Shown piece by piece: positions 2,033-11,348 of a DNA stretch of 32,144 nucleotides. The notes under the pieces were generated by a model. It was given only the letters and a program-made list of their open reading frames with translations. It had not been told where the DNA came from and searched no databases. The position numbers and the translations under genes are program-made. The stretch's first letter is position 1. Every line of letters starts with the position of its first letter. Source of the DNA: Rhizobium sp. Q54 (GTDB taxonomy: Bacteria > Pseudomonadota > Alphaproteobacteria > UBA2966 > CAIVPW01); assembly GCA_945889645.1 (NCBI GenBank), contig CAMDCA010000025.1:1-32144 (forward strand). Reading direction: 5' to 3'.

Positions 2033-2907
2033 TTGGCTCTGCGCGGCGCTTTGCCGGTGCCCTCCGGTACCGTCCGGCGACCCTGCTTGCCCTCGCCCTG
2101 CTCGCAATAGTTGTGGTGTCGGCGCTGGCCGCGGCCATCGTCGCTCCGCACGATCCGATTCTGCAGCACCGCGACGCCTTCTTGGCGCCTCCGTTTTGGC
2201 TAGCGGACGGGCGTCCGGAATTCCTTCTCGGCACCGACGCGGCGGGTCGCGACGTGCTGTCGCGAATCCTCTACGGAGCCAGGGTTTCCCTGGTATTCGG
2301 AGCCATCGTCACCTTGCTCGCGGGGGCCGTAGGCGGGGCCGCCGGCGTGGCCTCGGCCGTGTGGCAAGGGTGGGTCGGCGGGGTGCTGGAACGGCTGGTG
2401 GACATCGTTCAGACGCTGCCTGTCCTGGTACTTGCTTTGGCCGTTATTGCGATCTTGGGGCCTGGGCAAGTGCCTGCAATCATTGCACTTTCCATAGCTC
2501 TGCTACCGGGGTTTGCAAGGATCGCGCGCGCCGCTACACTGGCGCAGCTTGGTAAGGAGTATGCCCTTGCCTCGCGGGCGCTGGGGGGTGCGAGCTTTCA
2601 CCTGATCCGATGGGTGGTCTTGCCGAACATCGGCGGGCCGCTTGTTGTGCAGGGCACGCTTGCGCTGTCCGAGGCGATCCTGGGCTTAGCGGCCCTTGGT
2701 TTCCTCGGCCTGGGACTGACGCCCCCGACGCCAGAGTGGGGCACGATGCTGGCCGATGGCCGGCCGTATGTGTTGAACGCGTGGTGGACGGTAGTAGTGC
2801 CGGGCGGCGCCATCCTCGTGACGGTTCTCAGTTTGAACCTCGCGGCTGACGGCCTCCGGGAAGCGCTGGACCCAAAAGCACCGATCGCAACAGGACCGAA
2901 TACTTGA
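2029..2907 (+). CDS. ABC transporter permease, peptide/nickel type (DppC-like)
   Basis: A 292-residue membrane protein beginning at the ATG that overlaps the stop of the upstream permease. An N-terminal helix precedes the periplasmic segment with LLGTDAAGRDVLSRILYGAR, the hallmark of the DppC/OppC N-terminal region. The binding-protein-dependent transport domain follows, with an EAA-type loop (GKEYALASRALGGASFHLI) and a conserved LGFLGLGLTPPTPEWG segment. Length and topology are normal. An open frame in the same phase extends much further upstream, but it lies inside the DppB-like gene and is a shadow; the ATG at 2029 gives the family start. The downstream cyclase gene begins within its stop codon. 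Confidence 0.88.
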   Translation: MIGSARRFAGALRYRPATLLALALLAIVVVSALAAAIVAPHDPILQHRDAFLAPPFWLADGRPEFLLGTDAAGRDVLSRILYGARVSLVFGAIVTLLAGAVGGAAGVASAVWQGWVGGVLERLVDIVQTLPVLVLALAVIAILGPGQVPAIIALSIALLPGFARIARAATLAQLGKEYALASRALGGASFHLIRWVVLPNIGGPLVVQGTLALSEAILGLAALGFLGLGLTPPTPEWGTMLADGRPYVLNAWWTVVVPGGAILVTVLSLNLAADGLREALDPKAPIATGPNT

Positions 2908-5900
2908 CCGTGCGCCTCGTCGAGACCCAGGAACCGAATAGCGCCACCGCGACCAACGCCAGTCTGGCGGAAGGTCGTCGCAAGGTGGTGACGATGATGT
3001 TTGCCGACATCGTCAATTCGTCGAGCCTGGTCATCGGCCGCGATCCCGAGGCCGCCAACGACACGCTGCTGCCGATGCTGCAAGGCATGATCGATGCCGT
3101 GCACCAGTACGGCGGCACCGTGCTGCAGATTCTCGGCGACGGCATCATGGCCGCGTTCGGTGCCCCCGAAGCGCAGGAAGACCATGCGCTGCGCGCCTGC
3201 CTCGCGGCTGAACAGATGCGCCGCGAGCTTGGCCAATGGCCGACCCATTCCAAGTCCGACCCGGAAAGCGTGCGTGGCGCGCGCATCCGCGTCGGCATCA
3301 ACTCCGGCGAAGTCCTGGCGCAGGAACTGCTCGCCGACCGTTGGCCCGAATATCGCGCCGCCGGCGAGGCGGTGTACGTCGCCGCGCGCCTGACGGAAGC
3401 GGCGAAGCCGGGCGTCATCCTGCTGTCGGCCGACACTGAGGCGATCGTGCGCGACGCGGTCGAAATCGGTGAACGCCGCTCCGTGCATCTCGGCAAGCAA
3501 CTGCCGCGCGCTGCGGCCGTCGAGTTGCTGCGCGTGCGGCCTGCCGGTGGCCGGCCCAAGCGCGTCAGCGTGGCTCCCTTCCTCGGCCGCGCACGCGAGC
3601 GCCATCTGCTCAACGAGGCGCTGCTGCGTGCCGGCCAAGGCAGCGGCGAGATCGTCGTCCTGCAGGGCGATGCCGGCATCGGCAAGAGCCGCCTGGTCAC
3701 CGAATTCGAGGCCGAGGCGCGTGGAGGCGGCAACATCGTCGTCCGCGCCGGGTGCTATCCGCCGCACCTGTTCGTGCCTCTGCCGCCGGTGGTCGAGGCT
3801 CTGCGCAGTGCGCTGACGCTGCTTGGCGTAGTAGGCCCCGACGACGTCAGCGCCGAGCGCGCGCTGGTTATCCTGACTCCGTTGCACCGCGCCGCCGTGG
3901 CGCAGATGCTCGGCGGCTCGCCCGCCGATGCGCAGTGGCAATTGCTCGGGCCGACCGAACGGCGTCACCTCACGCTGTCCGCCTGCGTCGAGGTATTCGA
4001 GCAACTGGCGCGCGGGCAACAGAGTCTGGTGCTGCTGTTCGAGGACGTGCACTGGGCCGACTCGGACCTGGGCCGGCTGATCGACCTCCTGTCGGTGCGG
4101 GTTCACCTCGGCCGTACGCTGGTCGTCATGACGCGCCGTCCGGGTGCCGACTTCCAGGACACGCCGTGGCCCAGCACGTCGGTGGTCGACGTCGATCCGC
4201 TCAGCAGTGAAGACTGCGTCGAACTGGTGGGCGCAGTGCTCGGCCGCGCGCCGTTCCTCGCGCCGCTCCGCAACCTGCTGGTCGACAAGACCGGCGGCAA
4301 TCCGTTCTTCCTGCTCGAGTGCATCACGGCGGTCGCCGAGTCCGGTCCGCTGACCGAGCGCGGCGGGGCGGCCACCGTGCAGAGCTGGTGTCGCGAGTTC
4401 GCCGTGCCGCCGACGATTCAGACTCTCTTGGCGGCGCGCATCGATCGCCTCGATCCCGCCGACCAGGAGCTGTTGAGCCGCGCGGCCGTCATCGGCCAAA
4501 CCTTCGCGCACCAGCTACTCGCCCGCATCGTCGGCGATCGCCGCGAACATCGGCTGGCCGCGCTCAATCGCCTGTGCCAGGCCGGGTTCCTGCAGCGCAC
4601 GCGCGTCGTGCCGCATCTGGAGTTCAGCTTCAAGCACGCGCTGATCCACGACGTCACCTACGGGTCGCTGCCGCGCACCGTGCGCAAGAATTTGCACAGC
4701 GCGCTGGTCAAGGCGCTGCGCTCGCGCAGCCTCGAGATCCCGAACCGCCTCAGCCTGCTGGCGCAGCACAGCCTGTGCTCCGAGCAGTGGGCGCGTGCCT
4801 TTGTCTTCGGCCAGGCGGCCGGCCGCGACGCTTTGCGCCGCTCGCAGCATCGCGAGGCAGCGGTGCTGCTTGAGGGCGCCGTGGGCGCGCTGGATCATTT
4901 CCCGCGTTCACGGCGCAACTACGTGCGCGCGGCCCAGGCGCGCCTCGATCTTGCCAACGCGTTGTTCCCGCTTGGTCGCCGGCAGGATGCCGAGCGCCAG
5001 CTGGTCGCGGCGCGCAATGCTGCCGGCCGGTCCAAGGACGCGCGCGTGCTCACGCGGACGTGGTCGAGTTTGACGTTGCATCACTGGGTTGCCGGCAATC
5101 TCGACACAGCGCACCGGCTAGGGCTGCGCGCGCTGAAGGCGGCCGACGCCAAGGACTATCGCGATCTCAGCCTCGTTAACATCAGCCGCCTGGGGTCGAT
5201 TGCCCTCGAGCGCGGCCGCGGCCACCAGGCACGCAAGTACCTGGAGAAGGCGTTGGCGTTGTCCGACGCGCAGCCGGGCACGCCGCACGCCGGTTTTCTC
5301 GTCGTTGCGCCGGTGGTGTTCCAAGGACCGCTTGCCATTGCGCTGGCCCAGCTCGGCCAGTACCGCGAGGCGATCGCGTTGTGCGACGCCGCGGTCACGG
5401 CCGCTGAGGAATCGGGCCATCTATTCAGCCAAGTGTACGCGCTGATGTCGGCCGGCAACGTCTACCTGTATCAGGGCGACTTCGAGCGTAGTGCGCGGCT
5501 GCTCGGGCAATCGCTCCGCCTGTGCCGTACGATCGGTTCAACCTTGTTGGTGCGCCAGATCGTCAGCGCCATGGGCTATGCGTTCCTGCACCTCGGCCGC
5601 ACGGAGGAAGGCTGCGCCTTGCTCGAAGACGCTGTGGGCTCAGCGACGCCGGACCCCATGGTCGGACAATTGCCGCAGCACCTGGGCTGGCTGTCGGTTG
5701 CCAAGCTCGCGCTCGGCAAGCATGCCGAGGCCGCGGTTGTCGCCCGTCGTGCCATCACGCTGGCGCGGCGCAACGGCCAGCGCGGCTACGAAGCCTGGGG
5801 CTGGTACGCTCTCGGTCGCGCGCAGCATGCGCTCGATATGCGCGGTGCGCTGCGCTCGCTGGAGCGTGCGCGCACCATCGCTGTGGCGTGCGGCTTGAAG

Positions 5901-6068
5901 CCGCTCGCCGCTCGTACGGAATCCGGTTGGGGCGCGTCTGAATCGGCTTCCGCCGCGTCAGACGAAACGCCAGCGGCACGGCCACGAAGCCGCGGCCATC
6001 TTCGCCTCGTCGGTGATAGCGGCGCTTCCGGCGCCGCACGTAGCGCTCGTCGGCTCGCCCTTACTTAG
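2904..6068 (+). CDS. Class III nucleotide cyclase - AAA ATPase - TPR regulatory protein
   Basis: A 1054-residue multidomain protein starting at TTG (2904), which overlaps the stop of the permease gene by four bases. Residues about 28-210 are a class III adenylate/guanylate cyclase domain with metal-binding aspartates at 35 (MMFADIV) and 79 (GDGIMAAFGAP). The transition-state motif usually read as VNxAAR is VYVAAR here, so the catalytic Asn is Tyr158 while Arg162 is kept. An AAA/NACHT-like ATPase follows, with Walker A GDAGIGKS (255-262) and Walker B LVLLFEDVHWAD (near 375-386). The C-terminal third is helical TPR-type repeats. The architecture matches the large soluble cyclase/ATPase regulators common in rhizobia. 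If active it makes cAMP, relevant because a Crp-family protein with a cAMP-type pocket is encoded 3 kb downstream. It ends convergently with, and overlaps by 8 bases, a small minus-strand gene. Confidence 0.9.
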   Translation: MTVRLVETQEPNSATATNASLAEGRRKVVTMMFADIVNSSSLVIGRDPEAANDTLLPMLQGMIDAVHQYGGTVLQILGDGIMAAFGAPEAQEDHALRACLAAEQMRRELGQWPTHSKSDPESVRGARIRVGINSGEVLAQELLADRWPEYRAAGEAVYVAARLTEAAKPGVILLSADTEAIVRDAVEIGERRSVHLGKQLPRAAAVELLRVRPAGGRPKRVSVAPFLGRARERHLLNEALLRAGQGSGEIVVLQGDAGIGKSRLVTEFEAEARGGGNIVVRAGCYPPHLFVPLPPVVEALRSALTLLGVVGPDDVSAERALVILTPLHRAAVAQMLGGSPADAQWQLLGPTERRHLTLSACVEVFEQLARGQQSLVLLFEDVHWADSDLGRLIDLLSVRVHLGRTLVVMTRRPGADFQDTPWPSTSVVDVDPLSSEDCVELVGAVLGRAPFLAPLRNLLVDKTGGNPFFLLECITAVAESGPLTERGGAATVQSWCREFAVPPTIQTLLAARIDRLDPADQELLSRAAVIGQTFAHQLLARIVGDRREHRLAALNRLCQAGFLQRTRVVPHLEFSFKHALIHDVTYGSLPRTVRKNLHSALVKALRSRSLEIPNRLSLLAQHSLCSEQWARAFVFGQAAGRDALRRSQHREAAVLLEGAVGALDHFPRSRRNYVRAAQARLDLANALFPLGRRQDAERQLVAARNAAGRSKDARVLTRTWSSLTLHHWVAGNLDTAHRLGLRALKAADAKDYRDLSLVNISRLGSIALERGRGHQARKYLEKALALSDAQPGTPHAGFLVVAPVVFQGPLAIALAQLGQYREAIALCDAAVTAAEESGHLFSQVYALMSAGNVYLYQGDFERSARLLGQSLRLCRTIGSTLLVRQIVSAMGYAFLHLGRTEEGCALLEDAVGSATPDPMVGQLPQHLGWLSVAKLALGKHAEAAVVARRAITLARRNGQRGYEAWGWYALGRAQHALDMRGALRSLERARTIAVACGLKPLAARTESGWGASESASAASDETPAARPRSRGHLRLVGDSGASGAARSARRLALT

Positions 6069-6291
6069 GCTCAGCCGACTTCTCACCCAGCGCGTCCAAG
6101 CACGCCTCGGCTGCCGCTCCGATCAATAGGGCGGCGAGCTCGGCGCGGTGACCCGTTGCCTCCAAGCGCAACTGGTCCAAGCACGCCTTGATGCTGTTGA
6201 GCGCATGCTCTCTGCGGCCGCGAGTCTGGGCTTGTGCTGCCGCGGCCCGATCCGCAGGAACCATCTTCGCGGCTGCAACTGCACTCTTCAT
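6061..6291 (-). CDS. Small helical protein of unknown function
   Basis: A 76-residue, Ala- and Arg-rich protein with no domain I recognise. The ATG at 6291 was chosen because a GGAG sequence lies about nine bases upstream on the minus strand and because upstream methionines give an unlikely basic extension. Most of it should be alpha-helical, with one moderately hydrophobic stretch (ELAALLIGAAAEACLDAL). It is convergent with the cyclase gene, overlapping it by 8 bases, and divergent from the repeat-peptide operon. It therefore shares the intergenic region that holds the CRP-like sites. It may be regulated with the operon, but nothing in the sequence shows a link in function. Confidence 0.55.
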   Translation of the reverse strand: MKSAVAAAKMVPADRAAAAQAQTRGRREHALNSIKACLDQLRLEATGHRAELAALLIGAAAEACLDALGEKSAEPK

Positions 6292-6367
6292 ACCCGTTCT
6301 CCGAGATATTGGCCGCCGAACTAAGCGGGCCACTCTGAAGAGATGCACCGGTTGGGCAAGCCGGTTC

Positions 6368-6415
6368 TGTGAAGCACTTCACACTACGGCTCACCAGCGG
6401 GTGAACCAATTCACA
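6368..6415 (+). promoter_or_regulatory. Tandem CRP-like operator sites upstream of the repeat-peptide operon
   Basis: Site 1 at 6368-6383, TGTGAAGCACTTCACA, is a perfect match to TGTGA-N6-TCACA. Site 2 at 6400-6415, GGTGAACCAATTCACA, differs at one core base. Their centres are 32 bp apart, about three helical turns, so both face the same side of the DNA. If site 2 sits at the class II position (-41.5), transcription would begin near 6449, with a TAAGTA-like -10 around 6437-6442. That promoter placement is inference. The operon itself encodes a Crp-family protein with CRP-type specificity residues. Confidence 0.7.
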
Positions 6416-6479
6416 GCCCGGCAACACTCGTATCGGTAAGTAAGGGGGGTCGGGTCAGCAACTCTTAGGAGAATCAAAA

Positions 6480-6944
6480 ATGTCAGTGGGAACGCTTGTG
6501 CGGGGGCCGGATGGCCTCCTGTATGCGGTAGGTAATGGTACGGCGGCCGTGGTCGCTTCGAGCGACATGCCTGCGGTTGCGCCGGTTACGGCAGTGGCGG
6601 CAGCGACCGAGGATGCAGATGCCGGTCGATATTACGTGACGCCCGGCACCGATGCGAATGCCGGTCGCTACTATGTGACGCCGGGTGAGATCGCGGCGCA
6701 GGATTCGAATGCCGGTCGCTACTACGTGACGCCAGGCACCGATGCCGATGCCGGCCGCTACTACGTCACTCCGGGCAAGATTGAAGCCCAGGATGCCGAC
6801 GCCGGTCGCTACTACGTGACGCCAGGCACCGACGCAGACGCCGGCCGCTACTACGTCACCCCCGGTAAGGTCGAGGCGCGCGACAGCGCTGCCGGCCGCT
6901 ACTACGTGACGCCGGGCGACGAGAGCGAGACCGCGAACGCCTAA
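6480..6944 (+). CDS. Putative multi-core RiPP precursor with seven AGRYYVTPG repeats
   Basis: A 154-residue protein with a strong AGGAGA ribosome binding site at 6467-6472, seven bases before ATG. Residues 1-47 look like a leader (MSVGTLVRGPDGLLYAVGNG, then an Ala/Val-rich stretch) and resemble no signal peptide. From residue 48 the nonapeptide AGRYYVTPG occurs seven times (48, 61, 78, 91, 108, 121, 138), identical in every copy. Linkers alternate between four residues (TDAN or TDAD) and eight (EIAAQDSN, KIEAQDAD, KVEARDSA), so the real period is 30 residues. There is no cysteine anywhere, which rules out thiazole formation. Directly downstream are YcaO and TfuA genes; known YcaO-TfuA pairs thioamidate backbones, and thiovarsolin precursors are likewise modular. 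I infer that each nonapeptide is a core modified by that pair. A repetitive structural protein is the alternative, but the genomic context argues against it. Confidence 0.8.
   Translation: MSVGTLVRGPDGLLYAVGNGTAAVVASSDMPAVAPVTAVAAATEDADAGRYYVTPGTDANAGRYYVTPGEIAAQDSNAGRYYVTPGTDADAGRYYVTPGKIEAQDADAGRYYVTPGTDADAGRYYVTPGKVEARDSAAGRYYVTPGDESETANA
6621..6917 (+). repeat. Seven 27-bp coding repeats (AGRYYVTPG units)
   Basis: Units lie at 6621-6647, 6660-6686, 6711-6737, 6750-6776, 6801-6827, 6840-6866 and 6891-6917. The start-to-start spacing alternates 39 and 51 bases, giving a 90-base higher-order unit. Silent differences occur at eight of the nine codons between copies (for example CGA/CGC, TAT/TAC, GTG/GTC, ACG/ACT/ACC, CCC/CCA/CCG), with no amino-acid change. 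Units 3 and 5 are identical at the DNA level. Confidence 0.95.
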
Positions 6945-6951
6945 CCAAGCG

Positions 6952-6979
6952 ACCGCCCGCCGGTTCAACGGCGGGCGGT
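6952..6979 (+). terminator. Intra-operon GC hairpin between precursor and YcaO genes
   Basis: A perfect 11-bp stem (ACCGCCCGCCG at 6952-6962 with its complement at 6969-6979) encloses the loop GTTCAA. It begins seven bases after the precursor stop. The following bases (GCTTGCTTCG) are not a true T-tract, so it is more likely a partial terminator or an mRNA-stabilising 3' structure. Either would allow more precursor than enzyme, as is common in RiPP operons. Confidence 0.6.
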
Positions 6980-7013
6980 GCTTGCTTCGACACGCACTTT
7001 GCCGGGACAGACC

Positions 7014-8330
7014 ATGCACACATCGCCCACCACCACGCGCCCGACGGCCAACACGACGGCCAACACGACGGCCACCACCACGCGCAAGGCGCACCATGCC
7101 GGCACGCACCGCACGGTCGCGCCGGAAGAAACCCTGAAGCGCATCACACCGCTGCTGCCGGCCATGGGCATCACGCGCGTCGCTAACGTCACGGGGCTCG
7201 ACCGGGTCGGCATTCCGGTCGTCATGGTGACACGGCCCAACTCGCGGTCGGTGTCGGTGTCGCAGGGCAAGGGCACGACGCTTACCGCCGCCAAGGTCTC
7301 CGGCATCATGGAGGCGATCGAGGGCTACCACGCCGAGCGCGTGCTGCTGCCCCTGAAGTTCGCCAGCTTCGAAGAGCTTCGCTACACGCACCAGGTCGTC
7401 AACGTCTACGCATTGCCGCGCGTGGGCTGCAGCACGTTCACGCCGCACACGCCGCTGCTGTGGACCGAAGGCCGCAGCCTCGTCACCGGCCAGCCGGTGT
7501 GGGTGCCGTTCGAGACGGTGCACCTGAATTACGTTTCGCCGATGCCGACTGGCAGCGGCTGCTTCATCGCCAGTTCCAACGGTCTGTCGTCCGGTAACAC
7601 GCTGGAAGAAGCCATCAGCCACGGCATCTCCGAGGTCGTCGAGCGCGACGCCGCCACCCTGTGGCACCGCATGGACGCGGACGCGCGCGCCAAGACTCGC
7701 GTCGACCTTGCGACGGTGCTCGACGGCTGGTGCTGCGATCTCATTAAGCGCTTCGATGCCGCCGGCATCGACATCGGCATCTGGGACATCACGTCCGACA
7801 TCGGACTGCCCGCCATCCTGTGCCGCGCGGTGCCGCGCGACGGAACGGTGCACGGCTTCCGCCCGGCGGTCGGCATGGGTTGCCATCCGGCGCCCGAAAT
7901 CGCGCTGTCGCGCGCGCTCACCGAAGCGGCGCAGAGCCGCCTGACGTTCATCTCCGGCGCGCGCGACGACATGCCGCGGTCCGAGTACGAGCACTTCCTC
8001 GACGCCGGCGTGCACAAGCGCTGGCAGTCGATGCTGCACGACGAGACGCCGCAGCGTTCGTTCCAGGACGTCGGCGGCTTGGCGACCGAATCGATCAGCG
8101 CCGACATCCGCCGCGAGGTCACGCGCGTCATGGAGTGCGGCGGCGAGGACGTCATCGTCGTCGACCTCACCAAGACGGAGTTCGGCATTCCGGTGGTGCG
8201 CGTCATCATCCCCGGACTGGAAGGCATCGACCATTCGTCCGAGTACGTGCCGGGGCGTCGCGCCCTGGGGCGCGCCACCAACGACTCGGCCGTGATCCGA
8301 TCGATGCCGGCGGCCGGGAGAGCCGCATGA
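7014..8330 (+). CDS. ycaO: YcaO-domain protein (ATP-dependent peptide backbone cyclodehydratase / thioamide synthetase)
   Basis: A 438-residue protein from the ATG at 7014. The first 30 residues are a low-complexity Thr/Ala/Asn stretch, so the exact start is uncertain; a start at 6978 would fall inside the hairpin. The YcaO fold signatures are visible: SVSQGKGTT (about 81-89), then the ATP/Mg-binding acidic motif EAIEGYHAER (100-109), and the second cluster EEAISHGISEVVERDA (near 199-214). YcaO enzymes activate an amide oxygen with ATP. With a Cys, Ser or Thr side chain they make azolines; with a TfuA partner and a sulfur donor they make thioamides. The gene overlaps tfuA by four bases (ATGA) and follows the repeat precursor, so the AGRYYVTPG units are the obvious substrate. 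Confidence 0.9.
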   Translation: MHTSPTTTRPTANTTANTTATTTRKAHHAGTHRTVAPEETLKRITPLLPAMGITRVANVTGLDRVGIPVVMVTRPNSRSVSVSQGKGTTLTAAKVSGIMEAIEGYHAERVLLPLKFASFEELRYTHQVVNVYALPRVGCSTFTPHTPLLWTEGRSLVTGQPVWVPFETVHLNYVSPMPTGSGCFIASSNGLSSGNTLEEAISHGISEVVERDAATLWHRMDADARAKTRVDLATVLDGWCCDLIKRFDAAGIDIGIWDITSDIGLPAILCRAVPRDGTVHGFRPAVGMGCHPAPEIALSRALTEAAQSRLTFISGARDDMPRSEYEHFLDAGVHKRWQSMLHDETPQRSFQDVGGLATESISADIRREVTRVMECGGEDVIVVDLTKTEFGIPVVRVIIPGLEGIDHSSEYVPGRRALGRATNDSAVIRSMPAAGRAA

Positions 8331-9079
8331 CCGTTTTCGTCTTCACCGGCCCGAGCCTGTCGCCCGAGGCCGCGCGCGAGCACCTCGACGCCATCTACAT
8401 GCCGCCGGCTTCGCAGGGCGACTTGATCCGCGTTCTGGCGCGCAAGCCGACGGCGATCGGCATCATCGACGGCTTCTTCCACAATGTTCCGGCGGTTTGG
8501 CACAAGGAAGTCCTCGCCGCCCTGTCCCAAGGCGTGCCGGTGTGGGGCAGCGCCAGCATGGGCGCCCTGCGCGCTGCTGAGCTCGCGGCGTTCGGCATGG
8601 TCGGCGTCGGCTCGGTGTTCGAGGCCTACCGCGACGGCATCATCGAGGATGACGACGAGGTTGCCGTCACCCACGGTCCGGCCGAGCTCGGCTACCTGGC
8701 CCTGTCCGAGGCCATGGTCAACGTGCGCTGCACGCTGGCGGACGCACACGCGTCCGGCGTCATCAGCGAGCGCACGCGCGGCCTGGTCGAACGCACCGCC
8801 AAGGAGACGCCGTACGTCGAGCGCACGTACGACCGCATCCTCAAGGCCGCGGCCGTCGCCGGGCTTGGCGGCCGCGATGCCGAGGTTCTGCGCGCCTGGC
8901 TGCCGGCCGGCCGGCGTGATCTCAAGCGCGACGACGCCATCCGCATGCTGCGCACCATGCGCGAACGCCTCGGTGCAGGCCCGGCCCGGGTATCGCCCAA
9001 GTTCCACTTCGAGGAAACGACGCTGTGGATGAGCGCAGTAAAGGGTACGCTAGACGGGAAGAGAGCGTCCCGGACGTAA
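8327..9079 (+). CDS. tfuA: TfuA-like protein, partner of YcaO
   Basis: A 250-residue protein starting in an ATGA overlap with the YcaO gene. It has the TfuA-like domain pattern: an N-terminal FTGPSLS strand-turn, GIIDGFFHNVPAVWHKEVLAAL, then VWGSASMGALRAAELAAFGM and GVGSVFEAYRDG. The family is named after the trifolitoxin-locus gene tfuA. In characterised YcaO-TfuA pairs (methyl-coenzyme M reductase thioglycine, thiovarsolin) it is needed for thioamide rather than azoline formation, probably for sulfur delivery. Tight translational coupling supports a stable complex. The Crp-family regulator follows after only six bases. The family assignment is secure; the reaction is inferred from the pairing. 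Confidence 0.9.
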   Translation: MTVFVFTGPSLSPEAAREHLDAIYMPPASQGDLIRVLARKPTAIGIIDGFFHNVPAVWHKEVLAALSQGVPVWGSASMGALRAAELAAFGMVGVGSVFEAYRDGIIEDDDEVAVTHGPAELGYLALSEAMVNVRCTLADAHASGVISERTRGLVERTAKETPYVERTYDRILKAAAVAGLGGRDAEVLRAWLPAGRRDLKRDDAIRMLRTMRERLGAGPARVSPKFHFEETTLWMSAVKGTLDGKRASRT

Positions 9080-9085
9080 TCCTGA

Positions 9086-10165
9086 ATGCCAGCCGCAGTC
9101 GACCTGCGGAGCGTAGTCACCAGCAACGTCATCTTTGGAGCCCTCGCTCCGGAAGAGGTTGATCGGCTGCTCGCTGCCGCCGCGATACGCTTCTACGAGA
9201 AAGATCAGCAGATCTTTCAGCAGGGCGACCTTGCGGACGGGCTCTATCTCGTCGTCAGCGGTCGCGTCGGCATTCGCACGTTGTCCGAGGACGGCAGCGA
9301 GATCTTCCTCAATATCCTTGAAACCGGCGCGGTGCTCGGCGAAATCGCCGCGGTTGACGGTGGCGCCCGCACCGCAGGCGCGGTGGCGATGGAACGCTCC
9401 GACCTGTTGTTCGTCGATCGCCGCACCTTCCACGGCCTGATGCTCGCCAGTCCGCCGCTGTGCGTCAGCCTGCTGACGCTGATGTGCGAACGCCTGCGCT
9501 GGACCAGCTCGATCATCGAGGACGCACACTTCCGCGACGTACGCACGCGGCTTGCCCGCCGCTTGCACAAGCTGGTCGCAGAATATGGCGTTCCCGACGC
9601 AGTGGGCGTGCGCATCCGGCTCAAGATGACGCAGGAAATGCTGGCGCGCATGCTGGGCGCCACGCGCGAGAGCGTGAACAAGGAACTGATGGGGCTGCAG
9701 CGCGCCGGCGTGCTCAGCTACAGCCGCGGCTACGTCACCATCCTCAATTCGGAAGAATTGCGCCGCGCCATCGAGCAGCAGCGTCGCACGCCCATGCCGC
9801 CGGTCGGCACGACCCCTGCCTCCGTCGGCACGACCCTTGCGTGGAGGGACGCATGGCCCCACCGGCGTCCCTGCTCGACACCTACCCGAAAAATGGCCGT
9901 GTGCGGCCGATCACAAGCCTACGGCCGGGCCTCGCTGCCGTCGGTGGGCGCCTTCCGTTGCCCGATGGTTGTGCAATTGGTGTCTGTTTTCTGGGCAAGC
10001 GCCCGGCGCCGACGCGTGCTGAGCAGCCGCGATGACGTGGCTGATTCTCGTGCTGTGGCTGGTCGGCGACGAACGCCTTCCGACACCGACGGGCACCCTG
10101 TTGCAGGCCCGCGAGACGTTTCCGACCGAAGCCGCCTGCGTGGCAGCGATCCCCCAATACCATGA
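9086..10165 (+). CDS. Crp/Fnr-family transcription regulator with atypical C-terminal extension
   Basis: The first 235 or so residues are a standard Crp-family protein. The cyclic-nucleotide-binding domain (about 15-125) has GEIAAVDGGARTAG, keeping the Glu (86) and Arg (95) that hold cAMP in E. coli CRP, with Thr96 in the Ser83 position. A dimerisation helix follows, then a winged helix-turn-helix with recognition helix TRESVNKEL (R194, E195, K199), comparable to CRP R180, E181 and R185. No FNR-type cysteine cluster is seen. It probably binds the TGTGA-N6-TCACA dyads upstream of the precursor. The frame then runs on for about 120 residues of low-complexity sequence, overlapping a small plausible gene at 10032. 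Family members end near 230-250 residues, so this tail may reflect a lost stop or a frameshift. Confidence 0.85.
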   Translation: MPAAVDLRSVVTSNVIFGALAPEEVDRLLAAAAIRFYEKDQQIFQQGDLADGLYLVVSGRVGIRTLSEDGSEIFLNILETGAVLGEIAAVDGGARTAGAVAMERSDLLFVDRRTFHGLMLASPPLCVSLLTLMCERLRWTSSIIEDAHFRDVRTRLARRLHKLVAEYGVPDAVGVRIRLKMTQEMLARMLGATRESVNKELMGLQRAGVLSYSRGYVTILNSEELRRAIEQQRRTPMPPVGTTPASVGTTLAWRDAWPHRRPCSTPTRKMAVCGRSQAYGRASLPSVGAFRCPMVVQLVSVFWASARRRRVLSSRDDVADSRAVAGRRRTPSDTDGHPVAGPRDVSDRSRLRGSDPPIP

Positions 10166-10260: not shown

Positions 10261-10593
10261 CTAGACCAGAAACTCTTCGCGTTTGCGGTCGGCGGCCTCG
10301 GCCGCCACCAGCCAACGCGGCGAACGGCCGCGGCCGGTCCAGGTGTTGCCGTTCTCGTCGCGATACTTGATGCGCGCCTTGGCGCGCTGCCGCGCCGGAG
10401 CGTCACGGCTCGCGGCTTGCGTGGCGCGCCCCGCCGACGCCGCGCGCAACTCATCGACACCGATGTCGTGCTTGCGCATTTGCTTGACGATGGCTTTGAC
10501 CGCGGCGGCGCGGCCGCGGTTGGATTTCTTGAGCCGCTCCTGCAAGGCGGCGATCTGCTTGCGGATGGCGTTCTCGGAAAGAAGCCTGGGCAT
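10261..10593 (-). CDS. H-NS family nucleoid-associated protein
   Basis: A 110-residue basic protein. The N-terminal half (about 5-55) is a charged coiled coil (IRKQIAALQERLKKSNRGRA), the usual oligomerisation region. The C-terminal half has the H-NS DNA-binding signature YRDENGNTWTGRGRSPRWL, including the minor-groove-binding loop GRGRSPRWL. These proteins silence AT-rich or transferred DNA and bind curved DNA. It lies tail-to-tail with the preceding small gene and 58 bases beyond the oxygenase gene on the same strand. Its position between a peptide operon and a genomic island fits a xenogeneic silencer, but it could equally be a core paralogue. Confidence 0.88.
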   Translation of the reverse strand: MPRLLSENAIRKQIAALQERLKKSNRGRAAAVKAIVKQMRKHDIGVDELRAASAGRATQAASRDAPARQRAKARIKYRDENGNTWTGRGRSPRWLVAAEAADRKREEFLV

Positions 10594-10651: not shown

Positions 10652-11242
10652 TCACGGGCGGCGCGGCATCGCCACGCTGGCCCAGCCCGTTAAAATGTAT
10701 TTCTCGTGCGTCATGCTCACTTGGCTGCGGTGCGGGTACGTGAAGCTGGCGGGGAAGATCAGCACCTTCCCCTTCTTGGCCTCGCAGACGTATTCCTGGT
10801 GCTGGAACTCCGTGCCGCCGCCCGGAACGTCGTTCATATACAAGACGAACGCCAGGTGGCGATCGATGACGTCGCCGAATGAGTCGCAGTGCCACGTGTG
10901 ATAGCCGCCACCCGGCTTGTAATACTGGAAGTGCGGCAACGTGCGGAATTCGACCGGCTGCGGCCACGCTGCCTGCACATCCTTGTAATAGCGCGGAATG
11001 AACTCGACGAATTGCCGCATCGCCGCGTCGTAGCCGGAATCTTTTGGCGACGGCACGGCCGGATTGTTGCGCGGCAGTTTTTCGACGGCGAGATCCTCGC
11101 TGTCCTTGATCTTCTTGTTGACCTCGAAGCGGCCGGTCAGGCCGGGCGTCGTCAGGCCCAGCTTCTTGCCGATCTTGAACAGATCGATGAGCTGGTCGCA
11201 GACCGCGATGTCGGACAGGAAGTACTCTTTGACGAATTGCAT
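10652..11242 (-). CDS. 2-oxoglutarate/Fe(II) dioxygenase, prolyl 4-hydroxylase-like
   Basis: A 196-residue protein from the ATG at 11242; a GTG at 11323 gives a longer, less family-like start. The double-stranded beta-helix core is in the last 100 residues. The iron ligands are visible as HCD (His118, Asp120) in GGGYHTWHCDSFGD and His171 in TYPHRS. A basic residue near the C-terminus (Lys181) could bind 2-oxoglutarate. The AFVLYMNDVPGGGTEF segment is typical of prolyl 4-hydroxylase alpha-subunit-type enzymes. The reaction is hydroxylation of a protein, peptide or small-molecule carbon. Because the nearby precursor cores contain Pro in VTPG, this enzyme is a candidate tailoring hydroxylase. 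It is on the opposite strand and not in the operon, so that link is weak. Confidence 0.85.
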   Translation of the reverse strand: MQFVKEYFLSDIAVCDQLIDLFKIGKKLGLTTPGLTGRFEVNKKIKDSEDLAVEKLPRNNPAVPSPKDSGYDAAMRQFVEFIPRYYKDVQAAWPQPVEFRTLPHFQYYKPGGGYHTWHCDSFGDVIDRHLAFVLYMNDVPGGGTEFQHQEYVCEAKKGKVLIFPASFTYPHRSQVSMTHEKYILTGWASVAMPRRP

Positions 11243-11348
11243 GGCATGGTTCCAAAGGTATGCCGCCAAACGCGGCGCCGCGCCGATGATCCGCGACTCC
11301 CGCTCGCCGGGCAATGGAAACACCGCGAGTGGCGGCCACGGCAGCCTC

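What the first reader, a model, noticed from the sequence alone, without database searches (positions are those of the whole stretch)
6368..6415. Two phased CRP sites on the precursor promoter, with the Crp protein encoded in the same operon
One site is a perfect TGTGA-N6-TCACA and the second has one mismatch, 32 bp apart on the same helical face. The operon's own Crp-family protein keeps the cAMP-contact Glu/Arg and the recognition Arg-Glu. This predicts cAMP-dependent autoregulation of a RiPP operon, which is uncommon.
Basis: partly seen in the sequence, partly recalled or inferred. Interest (0 to 1): 0.68.

Follow-up and report, generated by a model that had tools for sequence, protein, structure and literature searches.

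The report
Self-contained Crp switch for RiPP operon
A bacterial gene cluster predicted to make a sulfur-modified peptide carries its own cyclic-nucleotide sensor, and the DNA site that sensor is predicted to read is conserved at the peptide's promoter in related clusters, including ones from the plant-associated bacterium Azospirillum.

Summary
Observation confirmed: 6368-6383 is a perfect TGTGA-N6-TCACA, 6400-6415 has one mismatch, 32 bp on; the 2.33 Mb genome has only two perfect sites. Of 128 YcaO-TfuA loci read, all 62 evaluable ones with a Crp gene after tfuA carry GTGA-N6-TCAC upstream of ycaO, against 1 of 63 without; perfect dyads 52 of 62 against 0 of 63. The association was predicted in writing before the second set was fetched. 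The Crp-bearing loci are nearly one YcaO clade: one conserved unit, not many gains. In 35 non-redundant promoters a -10 lies at fixed distance from the dyad (class II activator geometry) with a mirrored -10 facing a divergent gene, an RHH gene in 56 of 63. A class III cyclase lies upstream in 52 of 58. Best reading: the cyclase makes a cyclic nucleotide; the cluster Crp binds the dyad and activates precursor operon (its own gene included) and divergent gene. Binding, ligand (cAMP or cGMP), sign and start sites are inferred. The phased pair of dyads was seen only in the window's genus. New variant of known parts.

The parts
2904..6068 (+). Class III adenylate/guanylate cyclase + AAA ATPase + TPR protein, 1054 aa; presumed source of the cyclic nucleotide
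   Evidence: Pfam Guanylate_cyc 9.3e-18, AAA_16, TPR_12; cyclase upstream in 52 of 58 Crp-bearing loci with enough sequence held; both metal Asp kept in 53 of 53
6061..6291 (-). Divergent small gene, 76 aa, no Pfam family; relatives in L030 and L049. In Azospirillaceae loci an RHH gene takes this place
6368..6383 (.). Distal dyad TGTGAAGCACTTCACA, perfect Crp-type half-sites; proposed to serve the divergent promoter and/or add to the precursor promoter
   Evidence: conserved in L030
6400..6415 (.). Proximal dyad GGTGAACCAATTCACA, one mismatch; at class II distance from the candidate -10 of the precursor promoter
   Evidence: conserved in L030
6437..6443 (+). Candidate -10 (TAAGTAA) in the register conserved among relatives; predicted start about 6449-6450. 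Weak match to consensus
   Evidence: register; TAAGTA at the same spacing in L030; no sigma-70 pair found by scan
6480..6944 (+). RiPP precursor, 154 aa: leader with LVRGPDGLLYAV and 7 copies of AGRYYVTPG
   Evidence: leader motif and AGR..xTPG core in relatives
6946..6984 (+). Strong RNA hairpin between precursor and ycaO (partial terminator or mRNA stabiliser)
   Evidence: -34 kcal/mol, z -5.3; similar hairpin in L030
7014..8330 (+). YcaO
   Evidence: PF02624 5.3e-86
8327..9079 (+). TfuA (start overlaps ycaO stop)
   Evidence: PF07812 9.5e-48
9086..10165 (+). Cluster Crp; conserved part about 9086-9800, ORF runs on to 359 aa
   Evidence: PF00027 1.4e-21, PF13545 1.6e-16; M. tuberculosis CRP and GlxR among the nearest solved structures; residues

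Best explanation
The intergenic region 6292-6479 is a bidirectional operator for a cluster-encoded Crp. The upstream class III cyclase makes a cyclic nucleotide in response to an unknown signal (inferred). The Crp encoded after tfuA binds the TGTGA-N6-TCACA dyads in its ligand-bound form (inferred from its recognition helix and from strict co-occurrence) and activates transcription from class II positions (inferred from a conserved -10 at fixed distance). On one side it drives precursor-ycaO-tfuA-crp, so Crp would raise its own level; on the other it drives a divergent small gene. Most relatives would do both with a single dyad; the window and its sister have two dyads 32 bp apart, the proximal one in register with the precursor's -10 and the distal one nearer the divergent gene.
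For: Dyads and genome-wide rarity. Core dyad in 62 of 62 evaluable Crp-bearing loci and 1 of 63 others; perfect dyad in 52 of 62 and 0 of 63; in the set predicted beforehand 44 of 54 and 0 of 43. Perfect dyads: 52 in 742 kb of Crp-bearing loci, none outside the 2.5 kb upstream of ycaO; 0 in 798 kb of the others. Among 35 promoters under 55% identical, the only other columns over 0.75 bit are +38/+39/+43 (a -10) and the mirror -24/-23. A at -11 with T at -7 occurs in 23 of 35 at that offset against a mean of 1.6 (sd 2.2) over all offsets. Divergent RHH gene in 56 of 63. Crp pocket and recognition residues; the helix aligns with that of M. tuberculosis CRP (ATRESVNK against ASRETVNK), whose site is described as very similar to E. 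coli's (PMC4005916, passage). GlxR, also among the nearest solved relatives, has consensus TGTGANNTANNTCACA (PMC4254451, passage). The same gene order is annotated in A. lipoferum 4B and A. oryzae.
Against: No binding or expression data exist. The Crp-bearing loci form nearly one YcaO clade, so the association is one origin and does not by itself prove that this Crp, not another, reads the dyad. The genome has a second Crp with a TRET helix (L006). The window's own -10 candidates are weak (TAAGTAA; CATCTC on the divergent side; no sigma-70 pair). T140 is Val in 43 of 63 cluster Crps. The cyclase lacks the usual substrate Lys (Gln in 53 of 53) and transition-state Asn, so its activity is uncertain. 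L081 has the dyad but no recognised precursor nearby.
Confidence: 0.72

Rival explanations
1. A genome-wide Crp (such as the L006 protein) rather than the cluster Crp reads the dyads, so the cluster is an ordinary catabolite-type target.
For: L006 keeps a TTRETVARVL helix and a GE/RS pocket; E. coli CRP reads TGTGA-N6-TCACA (PMC4005916, passage read).
Against: The dyad follows the cluster Crp: 62 of 62 against 1 of 63, and L050 and L097, which fall in or beside the Crp-bearing clade without an adjacent Crp, lack a perfect dyad (L097 has one site with one mismatch). The genome has only one other perfect dyad.
Confidence: 0.12
2. The cluster Crp represses, or switches between the two divergent promoters, instead of activating both.
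For: With -10 elements on both sides of one dyad, two polymerases compete for the same space.
Against: The dyad stands where a -35 would be, in class II activator register, and no sigma-70 -35/-10 pair was found by scan in the window region; 23 of 35 promoters share the register.
Confidence: 0.15
3. The ligand is cGMP, or the Crp needs no ligand.
For: T140 (E. coli T127 position) is Val in 43 of 63. Clr is activated by cAMP and cGMP and has a TT motif at 140, and CgrA of Rhodospirillum centenum answers to cGMP (PMC10127613, passages). The cyclase has Gln for the substrate Lys.
Against: The window's own Crp has T140-S141 like E. coli CRP, and its nearest solved relatives include known cAMP receptors.
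Confidence: 0.25
4. The dyads are chance palindromes.
For: At <=2 mismatches the window is not enriched.
Against: Perfect dyad in 52 of 62 Crp-bearing loci with otherwise divergent promoter DNA; 2 perfect sites in 2.33 Mb.
Confidence: 0.01

Closest known systems
E. coli class II CRP-dependent promoters
   Same: TGTGA-N6-TCACA dyad centred near -42, no -35, -10 at fixed distance (class II geometry recalled; dyad consensus in PMC4005916 passage)
   Different: Regulator, target and probable cyclase are linked in one cluster; one dyad appears to serve two divergent promoters
GlxR (C. glutamicum) and CRP Rv3676 (M. tuberculosis)
   Same: Among the nearest solved structures by sequence; GlxR consensus TGTGANNTANNTCACA (PMC4254451 passage)
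   Different: Those are global regulators; this one is cluster-bound
TfuA-YcaO (thioamidated) RiPP clusters
   Same: Adjacent ycaO-tfuA with a precursor gene
   Different: Precursor family with RG[AP]DGxLYxV leader and AGR..xTPG core; own Crp and cyclase. The survey PMC8120280 has no main-text word beginning crp, cyclase or cyclic
Clr of Sinorhizobium meliloti and CgrA of Rhodospirillum centenum
   Same: Cyclic-nucleotide Crps; Clr pocket residues G85, E86, R95, S96, TT140 match in place (PMC10127613 passages)
   Different: Clr reads GTNNCNNNNGNNAC, not TGTGA-N6-TCACA
TOMM kinase/cyclase fusion protein TIGR03903
   Same: Best NCBIfam match of the cyclase gene, and the name links cyclases to RiPP loci
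   Different: 294 bits against a cut-off of 706; matches from profile position 269, so the N-terminal part is absent. PMC8939145 mentions adenylate cyclases near YcaO/TfuA loci in passing

Membership tests
Crp/Fnr cyclic-nucleotide receptor | cNMP-binding domain plus Crp-type HTH | tested here: met
   PF00027 1.4e-21, PF13545 1.6e-16
Crp/Fnr cyclic-nucleotide receptor | cAMP contact residues (E. coli G71 E72 R82 S83 T127 S128; numbering recalled) | tested here: met
   Window has G, E, R, T, T, S. In 63 cluster Crps: G 63, E 63, R 63, T 61, T 17 (V 43), S 62
Crp/Fnr cyclic-nucleotide receptor | Binds cAMP and then DNA | not testable with these tools
   needs protein
CRP class II activated promoter | TGTGA-N6-TCACA dyad near -41.5 in place of -35 | tested here: met
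   35 non-redundant promoters, centre about -42.5 from the conserved -10; in the window itself the -10 is weak
CRP class II activated promoter | Transcription rises with Crp and ligand | not testable with these tools
   no expression data
Thioamidated (TfuA-YcaO) RiPP cluster | Adjacent ycaO and tfuA with a precursor gene | tested here: met
Thioamidated (TfuA-YcaO) RiPP cluster | Thioamide in the product | not testable with these tools
   needs mass spectrometry
McrA-glycine thioamidation (TIGR03266 / NF033432) | Scores over the curated cut-offs | tested here: not met
   273.9 against 365 and 226.7 against 235.2 bits
TOMM kinase/cyclase fusion (TIGR03903) | Scores over cut-off, N-terminal part present | tested here: not met
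   294 against 706 bits, match begins at profile position 269
Class III nucleotide cyclase | Two metal-binding Asp and the other catalytic residues (positions recalled) | tested here: inconclusive
   Asp 53 of 53 at both places; Lys replaced by Gln 53 of 53; Asn replaced by His 47 (Tyr in the window); Arg replaced by Lys 48 (Arg in the window)

The most novel reading that the evidence does not exclude
The cluster is a closed peptide-and-second-messenger circuit: the mature, probably thioamidated, peptide or its target is sensed by the AAA-TPR part of the upstream cyclase, the cyclase makes cAMP or cGMP, and the cluster Crp then fires precursor operon and divergent gene from one symmetrical dyad. 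The peptide would be a signal in a private cyclic-nucleotide channel rather than an antibiotic.
Probability: 0.15. Interest if true: 0.85.

Novelty: new variant of a known kind. Interest (0 to 1): 0.6.

Why it matters
It gives an untested family of YcaO-TfuA peptides a concrete, testable switch: a cyclic nucleotide and the cluster Crp. The same gene order lies in cultured plant-associated bacteria (A. brasilense Sp7, A. lipoferum 4B, A. oryzae), so the prediction can be tested in the laboratory and the unstudied peptides possibly turned on. The single symmetrical dyad between two -10 elements would also be a clean natural case of a bidirectional Crp promoter.

Tried and rejected
Rejected: chance palindrome. 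Rejected as general: the phased pair of dyads as the working unit; the other Crp-bearing loci have one. Rejected: a terminator role for the dyads (no such site found there). Rejected: filing the enzymes as McrA thioamidation or as TIGR03903. Not settled: whether other <=1-mismatch sites in the genome form a regulon. Of 11 such places looked at, 3 are intergenic by ORF layout; the other perfect one (C16:23708) lies between genes of no evident link. The independent-pairs test on the YcaO tree had too few pairs to say anything, and the Fisher values ignore kinship and are not used as evidence. The order search around G099 returned only that genome. Literature searches listed no paper evidently about a cluster-encoded Crp or cyclase controlling a TfuA-YcaO RiPP; judged from titles, abstract starts and the passages named; the library holds open-access papers only. 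For PMC2447327 the text held was short and the terms were met only in its reference list, so the cyclase subclass could not be checked there.

Full report
What is there. In the window the plus-strand genes are: a class III cyclase-AAA-TPR protein (2904-6068), a RiPP precursor (6480-6944), ycaO (7014-8330), tfuA (8327-9079) and a Crp-type regulator (from 9086); a small gene (6061-6291) runs the other way between cyclase and precursor. The reported dyads lie at 6368-6383 and 6400-6415 in the region between the divergent small gene and the precursor. They are as described. In the whole 2.33 Mb assembly only two perfect TGTGA-N6-TCACA sites and 16 places with <=1 mismatch exist, against 10 for the reversed-pattern control. 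At <=2 mismatches the window itself shows no excess (9 found, 8.0 expected).

Relatives. TfuA was sought (NF033432) in 385 genomes of the class (21 with a match), 82 genomes of the order of G188 (62 with a match), 1 genome and 398 of the phylum (14), besides the YcaO searches and the PF07812 search of 15 genomes (3 with a match). I read 128 distinct loci: the window, L030-L032, L049, L050, L076-L097 and L142-L241. In the first 28, 8 had a Crp gene within 1.5 kb after tfuA, and all 8 had a perfect dyad upstream of ycaO; 0 of the other 20 had. I then wrote down the prediction before fetching 100 more. Of 97 evaluable (at least 550 bp held upstream of ycaO), 54 had the Crp: 44 with a perfect dyad and 52 with <=1 mismatch; 43 had none: 0 and 2. 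Together: perfect 52 of 62 against 0 of 63; <=1 mismatch 60 of 62 against 5 of 63. The two Crp-bearing loci without a <=1-mismatch site, L164 and L190, hold AGTGAA-N4-TTCACT palindromes upstream of the precursor, so the core GTGA-N6-TCAC is present in 62 of 62 against 1 of 63; this looser core was chosen after seeing them. Three loci were not evaluable: L195 (with Crp), L202 and L231. In 742 kb of Crp-bearing loci there are 52 perfect dyads, none outside the 2.5 kb searched upstream of ycaO; in 798 kb of the others there are none.

Kinship. On a YcaO tree (124 rows, FastTree) the Crp-bearing rows form almost one clade: 62 Crp-bearing rows plus L050 and L097. Many long branches are present, so details are unsure. 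The association is therefore one conserved unit and not many independent events. What shows selection is that the dyad stays while the flanking promoter DNA does not: among 59 promoters with a called dyad (L081 left out), 35 remained after removing those 55% or more identical, and in these the half-sites are nearly invariant.

Promoter geometry. In those 35, the only columns over 0.75 bit outside the dyad's span are +38, +39, +43 and -24, -23 counted from the dyad's first base. A at -11 and T at -7 occur together at offset +38 in 23 of 35, against a mean of 1.6 (sd 2.2) over all offsets. That puts the dyad centre about 42.5 bp before the start, where a class II CRP site lies (class II geometry is recalled). 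The columns -24/-23 are the mirror image and read TA on the other strand, so a second -10 faces the divergent gene. Caution: A-N3-T is its own reverse complement, so the two strands are told apart by the T at -12 only. The window and L049 have weaker -10 candidates: for the window TAAGTAA (6437-6443) beside the proximal dyad and CATCTC on the other strand beside the distal one; the sigma-70 scan found no pair. In the 35-row alignment the window is anchored on its distal, perfect dyad.

Divergent gene. Opposite the precursor, 56 of 63 Crp-bearing loci have a ribbon-helix-helix gene found with a profile built from five of them; two members hit PF13467 at 5e-20 and 8e-13. It was not found in the window, L030, L049, L081, L082, L167 or L195; the window, L030 and L049 share a different small protein there, with no Pfam match for the two tested. 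Two dyads in the window and L030, one elsewhere, fits a split of one two-way operator into two, but this is inference.

The Crp. Its best PDB relatives are CRP of M. tuberculosis and GlxR (which entries are GlxR is recalled). Across 63 cluster Crps: G85 63, E86 63, R95 63, T96 61, T140 17 (Val 43), S141 62, R194 63, E195 63. Clr of S. meliloti has G85, E86, R95, S96 and a TT motif at 140, and answers to cAMP and cGMP (PMC10127613, passages read). GlxR's consensus is TGTGANNTANNTCACA (PMC4254451, one passage). In the window's genome, among the 14 cNMP-domain places found, one other protein shows a comparable helix (L006) and is the main competitor.

The cyclase. In 53 Crp-bearing loci whose cyclase was aligned, both metal Asp are kept (53 of 53), the substrate Lys is Gln (53 of 53), the transition-state Asn is His in 47 and the Arg is Lys in 48; the window has Tyr and Arg there (catalytic positions recalled). 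Activity is therefore not assured. A cyclase lies upstream in 52 of 58 Crp-bearing loci with at least 4.3 kb held, and in 6 of 57 others. L030 counts as a miss in that tally, although a long ORF like the cyclase's C-terminal part lies there.

Precursor. The leader motif RG[AP]DGxLYxV and an AGR..xTPG-type core recur. The window has 7 core copies, most Azospirillaceae one. A recognised precursor was called downstream of the dyad in 56 loci, centre 70.5 to 155.5 bp before its start (median 97.5). None was called in L081, L163, L168, L181 and L195.

Named examples. The YcaO search of the plasmid collection gave 17 records, 11 of them Azospirillum. A. brasilense Sp7 (L242, which holds a 600-base piece of L155 exactly) and A. 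oryzae (L244) have a perfect dyad; A. lipoferum 4B (L243) has one with one mismatch. The annotation of the last two shows cyclase, divergent ribbon-helix-helix, small protein, YcaO, TfuA, Crp and a second ribbon-helix-helix gene; the Sp7 stretch bears no annotation in this collection.

Literature. The TfuA survey PMC8120280 (abstract, outline and term search) has no main-text word beginning crp, cyclase or cyclic. PMC4603692 and PMC13063428 were searched for terms only. PMC8939145 has a sentence naming adenylate cyclases in loci with YcaO and TfuA (passage). Searches listed nothing evidently on a cluster-bound Crp. That CRP of the host controls some microcins is recalled, not read.

Verdict. 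The regulator-operator pair is well supported as a conserved unit; ligand, sign and autoregulation remain inference.

Noticed in passing
window 6946-6984; L030 7914-7985: A strong RNA hairpin between precursor and ycaO (-34 kcal/mol, z -5.3) recurs in L030; likely a partial terminator or stabiliser that lets the precursor be made in excess.
   Followed up: partly
window 9800-10165: The Crp ORF runs about 120 aa past the conserved domain (359 aa against 231 in L030); a real extension or a sequence error in this assembly.
   Followed up: no
L190, just upstream of the precursor: The dyad sits in the middle of a much longer near-perfect palindrome (about 48 bp, read by eye).
   Followed up: no
L049 precursor: The precursor carries about twenty alternating AGRWA[VI][TS]P repeats, against 7 copies in the window and one in most Azospirillaceae.
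   Followed up: no
Crp-bearing loci downstream of crp: A second ribbon-helix-helix gene lies downstream on the same strand in 43 of 63 loci.
   Followed up: partly
L243 4507-5055: In A. lipoferum 4B an IS5 transposase is annotated just after a shortened cyclase gene.
   Followed up: no
window genus: The cluster is patchy: YcaO is found in 2 of 5 genomes of the genus.
   Followed up: no
window 10261-10593 (-) and 10652-11323 (-): An H-NS-type protein and a 2OG-Fe(II) oxygenase lie beyond crp on the other strand; the oxygenase could be a tailoring enzyme.
   Followed up: no
L088, L089, L200, L208, L209, L229: Other TfuA loci have a cyclase about 3.1-3.3 kb upstream of ycaO but no adjacent Crp, so cyclase and TfuA-YcaO are linked in more than one way.
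   Followed up: no
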